Source: an uncultured Clostridia bacterium (GTDB lineage Bacteria; Bacillota; Clostridia; Christensenellales; UBA1242). Taken from it: a DNA stretch of 64,000 nucleotides. The notes below the pieces were generated by a model. That model ran no database searches, had not been told where the DNA came from, and was given only the letters and a program-made list of their open reading frames with translations. The stretch lies in contig CANQOO010000003.1 in the NCBI GenBank assembly GCA_947625515.1, positions 62,001-126,000 of the forward strand, given 5' to 3'. Below, one piece after another: positions 42,534 through 47,740 of this stretch; within the stretch, counting starts at the first letter, position 1, and every line of letters begins with the position of its first letter. The position numbers and the translations under genes were made by a program.

Positions 42534-42555
42534 ATCTATTCGCAAAAGACAGGTT
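42534..42555 (+). repeat. attL core, 22-bp direct repeat
   Basis: ATCTATTCGCAAAAGACAGGTT, identical to 47719-47740. Confidence 0.9.
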
Positions 42556-42611
42556 AGGCAAATGTATACGCAAGTATGCATTTTTTTAATTAAAAAAACG
42601 GGAGGGGAGTA

Positions 42612-42941
42612 ATGGTAAACGATGCCACATTTTGGACAACTATTGCTTCGGCAGCAGTTGGAATTGTTATGTCTGTTGTATCTGTTCTCATCAACAAGAA
42701 AAAGAATAAATCTCAAAAATTGGTGGAGCTGGCTAAAATTGCTCAAAAACTGCCTGAGTTTATTTCTGAAGCTGAAAACATCTTTGGGGCTGGGAATGGA
42801 GCAGCTAAACTGACTTACGTGCTCAACAAGGTGCAAATCGAATGTTTGAAAAACAATGTCGAATTCAATGAAGAACAATTCAAGGGCGAAATCGAGAACA
42901 TTTTGAGCACACCAGAAAAGAAGGTGCCGAATGCTGACTAA
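42612..42941 (+). CDS. prophage membrane protein, possibly holin/lysis-like
   Basis: One N-terminal TM segment then long helical region; SD GGAGGGGAG. Confidence 0.6.
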   Translation: MVNDATFWTTIASAAVGIVMSVVSVLINKKKNKSQKLVELAKIAQKLPEFISEAENIFGAGNGAAKLTYVLNKVQIECLKNNVEFNEEQFKGEIENILSTPEKKVPNAD

Positions 42942-43020
42942 GAAAAAGCTTAAAGAACAAATCGACGAACTCAACAAAGAGATAAAAATCTTAAAAATGA
43001 TTATCAATTCAATCAAATAA
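42931..43020 (+). CDS. 29-aa coiled-coil-like prophage peptide
   Basis: MLTKKKLKEQIDELNKEIKILKMIINSIK, overlapping the upstream ORF; below the ORF-track cutoff. Confidence 0.4.
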   Translation: MLTKKKLKEQIDELNKEIKILKMIINSIK

Positions 43021-43030
43021 AGGAGAAAAA

Positions 43031-43150
43031 ATGAAAAAACGAAAAATGACAAACAAATCGCGTGACCGTGCAGTATTTGAAGTCACGGCCAACAAAATTC
43101 ACAAGAAAAATCTTGACACAAGTTATCCAAAAGGAGGAATTAGATTATGA
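43031..43150 (+). CDS. 39-aa basic protein (gokushovirus VP8/J-like DNA-binding/packaging)
   Basis: MKKRKMTNKSRDRAVFEVTANKIHKKNLDTSYPKGGIRL; SD AAAGGAG; ATGA overlap with next ORF. Confidence 0.75.
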   Translation: MKKRKMTNKSRDRAVFEVTANKIHKKNLDTSYPKGGIRL

Positions 43151-43398
43151 AACTTGAAATGTTTGCAGTTAAAGATGCAGTGCAAGGGGAGATGATGAAC
43201 CCATTTTTGCTGAGAAACAAAGAAGAAGCAAAAAGAACTTTCAAAGCAGCTGTAAATTCCGGAAAGGACAGCAACATCTGCATTTACTACAAGGACATGC
43301 AGTTATACAGCCTGGGGGAATATGACTCAATCACCGGCGAAATCACATCCAATGTCGAATATGTTTGCAGTGGCTTGGATGTAAAAGAGGAGGAATAA
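43147..43398 (+). CDS. microvirus nonstructural protein VP5-like
   Basis: MKLEMFAVKDAVQGEMMNPFLLRNKEEAKRTFKAAVNSG...YSLGEYDSITGEI. Confidence 0.8.
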   Translation: MKLEMFAVKDAVQGEMMNPFLLRNKEEAKRTFKAAVNSGKDSNICIYYKDMQLYSLGEYDSITGEITSNVEYVCSGLDVKEEE

Positions 43399-43950
43399 AT
43401 GACAGAATTTAAAAGTTTTGTAAATCCACACGAGCCTCACAAATTTGCTGAGGGCGGATTCAAGGAAACAGTAGACGTGTATGAAGACATAATCAATACG
43501 AAGACTGGAAAGCTTGAAACAAAGAAAACGAAAGAGGAAAATTTCTACTCGAAAATTCAAGAAATGAAAGACAGCCAAACTTTGGAAAACATCTTGAAAC
43601 GATACAACATCGACCTCAATGAAAGACATATCACGGAAATCAATGACGAAATCGTTGATATGACCAACATTCCAGAGGACTTGATTGAAACATATGCTCT
43701 TTCGAAAAAGCTGGAAACAATATTCAACGAATCGAGTGTGCAAATCAAAAATCACTTCGGAGATTTTGCAGGATTCTTGAAAAGCTTTCAAAGTGGGAAG
43801 TTGCAAAGCGAGCTGCAAGCTCTAAGCACAAAACCAAGGATGCAAGAGGCACAGGTGACTGAACAAGTGACACAAGGTCAAGCACAACCACAACCAGCAC
43901 AACAAGTGCAACAAAATCAACCAGCACAAGGAGGATTAATATATGGCTGA
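43399..43950 (+). CDS. microvirus internal scaffolding protein VP3
   Basis: Position before VP1 and scaffold-like composition; Gln-rich tail. Confidence 0.8.
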   Translation: MTEFKSFVNPHEPHKFAEGGFKETVDVYEDIINTKTGKLETKKTKEENFYSKIQEMKDSQTLENILKRYNIDLNERHITEINDEIVDMTNIPEDLIETYALSKKLETIFNESSVQIKNHFGDFAGFLKSFQSGKLQSELQALSTKPRMQEAQVTEQVTQGQAQPQPAQQVQQNQPAQGGLIYG

Positions 43951-46207: not shown

Positions 46208-47242
46208 ATGGCAAGTTGTCCAAGACCAATGCATGCTTTCTACACCGGTGAAAAGACCGCCACAGGTGGTGAAAAAATGATTTTCACATCGAGATTCCAA
46301 GAAGAGGTGAAATACATGCACCACCTGCCAAAAGGCGGTGATGTGGAGGTAACACTGGTCGATTATGTCGAAATTCCTTGCGGAAAGTGCATGATTTGCA
46401 AGGCCAATCAAGCTAAAAAGAAAGGCGAGCGAGCAATGGCTGAGGCAAACACATGGGAGCATAACGAAGTCATAAATCTGACCTACAATGATGAAAATCT
46501 GCCAACGAACACAAAACCGGATGGCACAAAAGTCGCGACTTTAAGATACAAAGATGTCCAAGACTTCAAAAAAAGGCTTTTGAAAACTTGGAAAGAAAAA
46601 TACAATGCAACAGGAATAAGATTTTTATGTGCTTGTGAATATGGCGAAAAATATCAAAGGCCACACTACCATCTGATTATGTTCAATTTTGAGGCACAGG
46701 ACAAAAAATTCTATGGCTACACCAAAAAAGGTTCAAAAGAATATGGCAGCGAAGAAATTGCCAAAATTTGGGGCAAAGGCAACATAACACTTGGAGAAGT
46801 CACTCCGGAGACGATTCAGTATGTTGCAAACTATTGCTTGAAAAAATTCAAGGGAAAAGAAGCAAAAGGAATTTACAAAGAGCTTGGAGTTGAACCGGAA
46901 AGCGTCAAATCAAGCAATAGAAGGGGTCTAGGAGCCAATTTTATAGAAAAACGTGTGGAGATATATAAAAACACCGGAAAATGCTTTCTAGGCACCTTCA
47001 ACGGGCTGAAAACGATAGGTGTGAACAAATACTATGACCAAATGGTGGCAGATATCTATGGGGAAGATGTCTTGAAACAACTCAAAGAGGAAAGAATGAA
47101 GCTTGCATCAGACAGAGAGAAAACAAGAGCATTCATTTCGGGAATTGAAATTGAAACACAAAGACAAAATGACGAAAGAATATTCCTAGAGCGAATAAAA
47201 AAAGCAAAGGGAGGACGACAATTTCAAAACACAGGCTATTAA
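46208..47242 (+). CDS. microvirus replication initiation protein VP4
   Basis: VEIPCGKCMICKANQAKKKGERAMAE, RPHYHLIMFN HUH-type motif, catalytic-region Tyr residues. Confidence 0.94.
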   Translation: MASCPRPMHAFYTGEKTATGGEKMIFTSRFQEEVKYMHHLPKGGDVEVTLVDYVEIPCGKCMICKANQAKKKGERAMAEANTWEHNEVINLTYNDENLPTNTKPDGTKVATLRYKDVQDFKKRLLKTWKEKYNATGIRFLCACEYGEKYQRPHYHLIMFNFEAQDKKFYGYTKKGSKEYGSEEIAKIWGKGNITLGEVTPETIQYVANYCLKKFKGKEAKGIYKELGVEPESVKSSNRRGLGANFIEKRVEIYKNTGKCFLGTFNGLKTIGVNKYYDQMVADIYGEDVLKQLKEERMKLASDREKTRAFISGIEIETQRQNDERIFLERIKKAKGGRQFQNTGY

Positions 47243-47257
47243 GCTTGTGTTTTTTTA
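47228..47257 (+). terminator. Terminator overlapping the VP4 stop codon
   Basis: AACACAGGCT-ATTA-AGCTTGTGTT plus T-run. Confidence 0.7.
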
Positions 47258-47444
47258 TGCCCTCTGCTCGGGCCGGGCGGGCCCGCAAAGATCCTATGGC
47301 CGGATAGGCCGAGCGAGGAAGCAGTGGGCCTCAGGGCCGGCCAGGCTCATGCAAGCAGGCAGTCTCCAAGGGTCCGTCAGCATGGGGCAAAGAAAGGGAA
47401 AAAATTGCTGCTAGAAAATTTTTTGAAAAATTTGATAAAATTGC

Positions 47445-47497
47445 TTGACAAGGTGTAAACACTTGTGCTACTAATATTAGCGTATACGCGAGTATTA
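47445..47497 (+). promoter_or_regulatory. Promoter with overlapping operator-like dyad upstream of RHH gene
   Basis: TTGACA-18-TACTAA with TG extension; dyad TAATATTAGCGTA/TACGCGAGTATTA (11/13). Confidence 0.7.
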
Positions 47498-47533
47498 CAA
47501 TTTGCCAATTAAAACATTAAAAGGAGGTGAATA

Positions 47534-47674
47534 ATGAAAAACATTCCATATTGCATTAGATTAAAGGAAGAAACTTTGAACAGTGTAAAAGAAGTCGCAA
47601 AAGCAAAAAAAAGACCAACAGGGCAATTATTAAGAATAATCATTGAAGATTACATCGAAAAAATAAACCTATAA
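47534..47674 (+). CDS. 46-aa ribbon-helix-helix DNA-binding protein (putative lysogeny regulator)
   Basis: MKNIPYCIRLKEETLNSVKEVAKAKKRPTGQLLRIIIEDYIEKINL; SD AAGGAGGTGA. Confidence 0.75.
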   Translation: MKNIPYCIRLKEETLNSVKEVAKAKKRPTGQLLRIIIEDYIEKINL

Positions 47675-47718
47675 ATTTTTGGGCGACAAAACAATATTTT
47701 AAGTATACTTTGTAATAA

Positions 47719-47740
47719 ATCTATTCGCAAAAGACAGGTT
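47719..47740 (+). repeat. attR core, 22-bp direct repeat
   Basis: Identical to 42534-42555. Confidence 0.9.

What the first reader, a model, noticed from the sequence alone, without database searches (positions are those of the whole stretch)
42534..47740. Complete temperate gokushovirus-like microvirus integrated in a Bacillota chromosome
VP5, VP3, VP1, VP2 and VP4-like genes are intact and collinear between tgt/Sel1 remnant and the nifS/iscU-like genes. A perfect 22-bp direct repeat bounds the unit and implies a 5185-bp circle, a normal microvirus genome size. No integrase or recombinase gene is present. Temperate microviruses are known mainly from Bacteroidota and enterobacteria, so a Bacillota example would give a firm host assignment and possibly a new lineage.
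Basis: partly seen in the sequence, partly recalled or inferred. Interest (0 to 1): 0.85.

Follow-up and report, generated by a model that had tools for sequence, protein, structure and literature searches.

The report
Tiny DNA-virus prophage at Clostridial dif
A complete 5.2-kb single-stranded-DNA phage is inserted exactly at the chromosome-dimer-resolution site (dif) of an uncultured gut Clostridium-relative, so it most likely borrows the host's own Xer recombinase to become dormant; this is a known trick, here in a new host lineage that seems to have only one Xer enzyme.

Summary
Phage-free relatives carry one copy of the 22 bp with both flanks joined. A related phage sits at the same site in another genome, inverted. 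Related free circles (5221 and 5259 bp) carry a matching site in the equivalent gap. So integration is real and integrase-less.

It is dif: a 28-bp near-palindrome (11+6+11) where GC skew flips, usually one perfect copy per genome. Ten family prophages with two readable att sites share one plan: one phage end keeps a good arm, the other a degenerate arm. The host family carries one Xer recombinase near dif; several near-complete genomes have no other tyrosine recombinase. The most likely mechanism is capture of a single-Xer system.

Dif-integrated microviruses (Bacteroidota, enterobacteria) and Bacillota microvirus prophages are already published. New are the host lineage, the single-Xer dif, and a firm host for rodent-gut microviruses.

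The parts
42537..42564 (+). attL: dif-like 28-mer TATTCGCAAAA-GACAGG-TTAGGCAAATG (host arm, core, degenerate phage arm); overlaps the left 22-bp repeat 42534-42555
42564..42577 (+). putative RHH operator GTATACGCAAGTAT, upstream of the holin-like gene
   Evidence: 14-bp near-match in the RHH promoter; shuffles reach it 5 in 100, so suggestive only
42612..42941 (+). holin-like protein, 109 aa
   Evidence: PF09682 28.7 bits (cut-off 24.9), phrog_6918 E 3e-11; homologues in G109, G221, PQ006699, MZ089778
43031..43150 (+). J/VP8-like basic DNA-binding peptide, 39 aa ending KGGIRL
   Evidence: same short ORF ending RGG[IT]RL in most family prophages; the annotated 'DNA binding protein' of PQ006699 lies at the matching place
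43147..43398 (+). VP5 (Phage_ORF5)
   Evidence: PF20577 66.9 bits
43399..43950 (+). VP3 internal scaffold
   Evidence: PF09675 49.6 bits
43943..45640 (+). VP1 major capsid protein, 565 aa
   Evidence: PF02305 454 bits, phrog_514 584 bits
45652..46065 (+). VP2 DNA pilot protein, short (137 aa)
   Evidence: phrog_11693 E 1.8e-26
46064..46190 (+). three-hairpin structure closed by a 13-bp stem; candidate rolling-circle origin with loop ATAAACAAGTA
   Evidence: ssDNA fold z -7.0; same fold in four relatives, loop invariant
46208..47242 (+). Rep/VP4 replication initiator, 344 aa
   Evidence: phrog_942 258 bits, PF23343 60.8 bits
47257..47400 (.). GC-rich structured non-coding stretch after Rep, function unknown
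   Evidence: about 60% GC, fold z -2.8; similar stretch in PQ006699
47482..47495 (+). putative RHH operator GTATACGCGAGTAT in the RHH gene's own promoter region
47534..47674 (+). ribbon-helix-helix (Arc/CopG-like) protein, 46 aa; candidate lysogeny repressor
   Evidence: weak Pfam/PHROG RHH hits, below curated cut-offs; RHH ORF at the same place in most relatives
47722..47749 (+). attR, which is a complete host dif: TATTCGCAAAA-GACAGG-TTTTACGCAGA; overlaps the right 22-bp repeat 47719-47740
   Evidence: GC skew flips here; same site empty in G117, G106, G086, G035

Best explanation
This is an intact temperate gokushovirus-like microvirus integrated at the host's dif site. Shown: complete gene set; dif-like att sites at both ends; GC-skew flip at the site; empty dif in sister genomes; same architecture in related prophages; one Xer gene near dif. 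Inferred: after infection the double-stranded circle (attP = good arm, core, degenerate arm; 5185 bp) is recombined into dif by the host's single Xer recombinase. The core's direction sets the prophage's orientation. A complete dif is rebuilt at the right end, so the host keeps dimer resolution and the event stays reversible. The RHH protein probably represses the capsid/lysis operon beside attL, the holin-like protein probably helps lysis, and Rep probably starts rolling-circle replication at the hairpin structure before its gene.
For: Gene content. 22-bp repeat, spacing 5185. Empty sites: in G117 (84-90% DNA identity) the left flank ends at 1191 and the right flank starts at 1170, sharing exactly the 22 bp, with no phage between; likewise G106, G086, G035. 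GC skew is positive up to the prophage and negative after it in G000:C3, and flips at the phage-free dif of G041; in G157 it flips in the same region within about 10 kb. The motif is in 241 of 311 family genomes at up to 1 mismatch. Phage in G109 (77% DNA identity) at the same place, inverted. Ten family prophages with two readable att sites share the good-arm/core/degenerate-arm plan; copy spacings 5024-5830 bp. Free circles PQ006699 and MZ089778 carry an attP-like 28-mer in the matching gap. Single Xer of about 346-375 aa within about 1-25 kb of dif; the only PF00589 protein in G157, G072, G132, G301, G139, G246. For E. coli gokushovirus EC6098, integration needs XerC/XerD and dif (PMC7062461).
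Against: No reads and no experiment: excision, induction and Xer dependence are not shown. The own genome is 81% complete, so a second Xer could be missing there. The operator evidence is weak (5 of 100 shuffles reach it). The exact attP junction was not found in IMG/VR, so a free form of this very phage is not shown.
Confidence: 0.87

Rival explanations
1. Same dif integration, but by a conventional two-recombinase XerC/XerD pair whose second gene is missing from the draft or too diverged to see.
For: Own genome 81% complete; some relatives carry other tyrosine recombinases; the Xer scores almost equally on the XerS, XerC and XerA models.
Against: Six near-complete relatives (94-100%) have exactly one PF00589 protein. 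Both dif arms are near-perfect inverted copies, as one enzyme would need, whereas E. coli dif arms differ. xer is linked to dif, as in XerS and XerH systems (PMC9765430).
Confidence: 0.13
2. Assembly artefact: a free phage contig wrongly joined into the chromosome at a shared 22-bp word.
For: The free form shares the site with the chromosome, the kind of overlap that can mislead an assembler; no reads were available.
Against: Independent assemblies of other species show the same arrangement. Flanks differ from the empty site exactly as recombination predicts, one arm coming from the phage at each end. A dif mimic on a circular phage has no other evident purpose.
Confidence: 0.04
3. Inactive relic at dif, no longer able to excise or form virions.
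For: Short VP2 (137 aa); degenerate arm in attL.
Against: All frames open; VP2 is also short in PQ006699 (414-bp gene) and MZ089778 (453 bp), which are free circles; a degenerate arm occurs in the related prophages and in both free circles, so it is a design feature.
Confidence: 0.07

Closest known systems
Bajarodmic virus 527 (PQ006699) and Microvirus mar32 (MZ089778), free circular rodent-gut microviruses
   Same: VP1 78% and 77%, Rep 71% and 69% identity; same gene order incl. holin-like gene and a 46-47 aa ORF before the site; dif-like attP in the same gap
   Different: Sequenced as free circles with no host; core in the opposite direction (CCTGTG, CCTGTC), so they should integrate in the other orientation
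Enterogokushovirus EC6098 (MT185428)
   Same: Integrase-less gokushovirus with a dif motif, integrating at dif through host Xer (PMC7062461)
   Different: VP1 38.6% identity, different gene order, Gammaproteobacterial host with two recombinases
BMV proviruses of Bacteroidetes (Alpavirinae)
   Same: Microvirus proviruses at putative dif sites without integrase (PMC3091885)
   Different: About 6.3 kb, other subfamily; hosts have xerC and xerD; GC skew could not be checked there
Microvirus prophages of Erysipelatoclostridium and Mammaliicoccus sciuri
   Same: Complete microvirus prophages in Bacillota (PMC9239249)
   Different: Other classes of host; sequences not compared here; the passages I read do not describe their att sites
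LME-1 / XerL-dif of Legionella, XerS-difSL, XerH-difH
   Same: Single-recombinase dif systems; LME-1 is a mobile element exploiting one; uninterrupted inverted-repeat arms in Legionella dif (PMC9765430)
   Different: Host Xer here misses NCBIfam's XerS cut-off (177 vs 267 bits); the element is a microvirus and the host a Clostridium-relative

Membership tests
Gokushovirinae (sensu lato) | VP1, VP2, VP3, VP4, VP5 and J-like VP8; circular genome near 4.5-5.5 kb | tested here: met
   unit 5185 bp
Gokushovirinae (sensu lato) | No major spike G or external scaffold D as in Bullavirinae | tested here: met
   No such gene in the ORF list or family hits
Gokushovirinae (sensu lato) | VP1 groups with SpV4, phiMH2K, Chlamydia phages and EC6098 to the exclusion of other subfamilies | tested here: inconclusive
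   One-clade test p-AU 0.078; Stokavirinae and large gut forms fall inside on long branches
Temperate dif-integrating microvirus (IMEX) | No integrase in the element | tested here: met
Temperate dif-integrating microvirus (IMEX) | att is a 28-bp dif-like site at the terminus (GC-skew flip) | tested here: met
Temperate dif-integrating microvirus (IMEX) | Empty dif in phage-free relatives | tested here: met
   (G117, G106, G086, G035)
Temperate dif-integrating microvirus (IMEX) | Integration depends on host Xer | not testable with these tools
   needs experiment; shown for EC6098 in E. coli (PMC7062461)
XerS (host recombinase) | Reaches the curated score of the XerS equivalog model | tested here: not met
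   NF003462 177.4 bits, cut-off 267
Single-recombinase Xer/dif system (host) | Only one Xer gene, linked to dif | tested here: met
   One PF00589 protein in G157, G072, G132, G301, G139, G246; xer within about 1.5-5 kb of dif in these; 18 kb in G000

The most novel reading that the evidence does not exclude
This uncultured Clostridia family resolves chromosome dimers with its own class of single Xer recombinase, neither XerS, XerH, XerL nor XerA, linked to a near-perfectly palindromic dif. Several separate gokushovirus lineages have adapted to it, using the 6-bp core to choose host and direction and always leaving one complete dif. They would be the first microviruses known to exploit a one-enzyme Xer system.
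Probability: 0.5. Interest if true: 0.65.

Novelty: new variant of a known kind. Interest (0 to 1): 0.52.

Why it matters
Gokushovirus-type microviruses abound in gut viromes but are mostly hostless. Integration into the terminus ties one lineage, including two sequenced rodent-gut circles, to Candidatus Caccovivens and kin, and the dif core gives a readable host tag for free genomes. It also points to an undescribed-looking one-enzyme dif/Xer system in uncultured Clostridia, testable with purified parts.

Tried and rejected
Exact attP junction in IMG/VR: no match. Rfam: nothing in the locus, so the GC-rich stretch is no known RNA; no tRNA in the window, so this is not tRNA-gene integration. 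VP1 against IMG/VR found only relatives up to 48%. Phage_F across the order and class: no full-length copy outside this family in the sample; one other Clostridia genome has a capsid gene in two pieces, not followed. Chp2 record not held. Gokushovirinae monophyly by VP1 tree: inconclusive. Shared operator words in other prophages: strong in G221 and MZ089778, not above chance in G267 and G153. SpV4 was first lost because it needs code 4, then added. Metagenome contigs could not be searched; the homologue table lists the window's own VP1 cluster with four member sequences and a longest contig of 5036 bp, which might be a free copy but could not be opened.

Full report
OBSERVATION. The 22-bp direct repeat is exact and its copies are 5185 bp apart. 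Between them all frames are open. Profiles identify VP5, VP3, VP1, VP2 and Rep.

HOST. The window lies in a 157-kb contig of a 1.11-Mb, 81%-complete genome. One genome of the same genus by the tool's kinship (G027) has a phage-bearing contig of 82,380 bp, the length of the Candidatus Caccovivens faecavium contig found by name. NCBI places that genus in Bacillota, Clostridia. So the Bacillota assignment holds.

THE ATTACHMENT SITE IS DIF. Around the right repeat is TATTCGCAAAA-GACAGG-TTTTACGCAGA, two inverted 11-bp arms and a 6-bp core. GC skew is positive for the whole stretch left of the prophage and negative right of it; a phage-free relative (G041) flips at its own copy. In a third (G157) the flip falls in the region holding xer and the phage, within roughly 10 kb. 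The pattern occurs, with up to one mismatch, in 241 of 311 family genomes, typically one perfect copy among those listed.

EMPTY SITES. In G117, the closest relative by flank identity, tgt and the genes right of the prophage are joined through a single copy of the 22 bp: left-flank match ends at 1191, right-flank match starts at 1170. G106, G086 and G035 agree. G109 instead has a phage 77% identical in DNA at the same site, pointing the other way.

RULE SHARED BY RELATIVES. Phage_F is in 13 of 311 family genomes (14 copies); some lie on contigs too short to judge. In ten prophages with two readable ends (including both members of a tandem pair), read in phage direction, the left att carries a degenerate second arm and the right att a complete dif, except the inner site of the tandem (for the window the right site is). 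G221's left arm is only slightly degenerate. Thus attP is good arm, core, degenerate arm, and a whole dif is rebuilt. In G267 and G240 the cores of the two ends differ after the first one to four bases, suggesting that the exchange happens at the edge of the core next to the good arm. The window's core reads GACAGG in phage direction and G109's reads CCTGTC, which explains the opposite orientations: core identity sets direction (inference). The free circles carry CCTGTG and CCTGTC; G030's dif has CCTGTG, so its kin are a candidate host for PQ006699 (inference).

RECOMBINASE. A 364-aa tyrosine recombinase lies 18 kb from dif. Orthologues exist in 284 of 311 family genomes. In six near-complete relatives it is the only PF00589 protein, within a few kb of dif. 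It scores best on XerS (177 bits) but misses the curated cut-off, and XerC follows closely. Hence a single-recombinase system is likely; I do not file it as XerS. Single-Xer systems are known for XerS, XerH and XerL, and a mobile element using XerL-dif is published (PMC9765430, PMC5357621).

HOW IT PROBABLY WORKS. Double-stranded replicative circle, Xer exchange at dif, dormant state held by the RHH protein, reversible excision by the same enzyme. The repressor step rests on an imperfect 14-bp word shared by the RHH promoter and the left end (5 of 100 shuffles reach it in the window, 0 of 100 in G221 and MZ089778), so it is a hypothesis. Replication likely starts at the three-hairpin structure before rep: the fold recurs in five phages with different stem sequences and an invariant loop ATAAACAAGTA.

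PHYLOGENY. VP1 groups with G109, the two rodent circles and Ca. Caccovivens with full support. The family's other prophages fall in several separate lineages among gut microviruses. Formal Gokushovirinae monophyly could not be decided.

NOVELTY. Temperate dif-using microviruses are known in Bacteroidetes (PMC3091885) and proven in E. coli (PMC7062461). Bacillota prophages are reported (PMC9239249). My searches of the open library found no description of microviruses in this host lineage, or of microviruses using a one-Xer dif, but the library lacks most subscription journals.

Noticed in passing
window 46064-46190: Three-hairpin structure closed by a 13-bp stem between VP2 and rep; same fold with changed stems and constant loop ATAAACAAGTA in four relatives: candidate origin.
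   Followed up: partly
window 47257-47400: GC-rich (about 60%) structured non-coding patch in an AT-rich phage, also in PQ006699 near 3250-3350; no Rfam match.
   Followed up: partly
L033 4386-14757 (G167:C10): Two prophages assembled in tandem at one dif, identical over 4735 bp but diverged in the first ~480 bp; either serial integration or an unresolved repeat.
   Followed up: partly
L031 and L035 att sites (G267, G240): Core differs between left and right ends (TACAAT/TACAGG; GGCAAC/GACAGC), hinting at strand exchange at one core edge only.
   Followed up: no
window 41884-42450: Sel1-like segment between tgt and dif, absent from G117, where tgt lies about 120 bp from the matching flank; G109 matches part of it.
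   Followed up: no
L165/L168 (G790:C24): Another Clostridia genome outside the family has a Phage_F gene matched in two pieces within one 436-aa frame on contig C24; context not examined.
   Followed up: no
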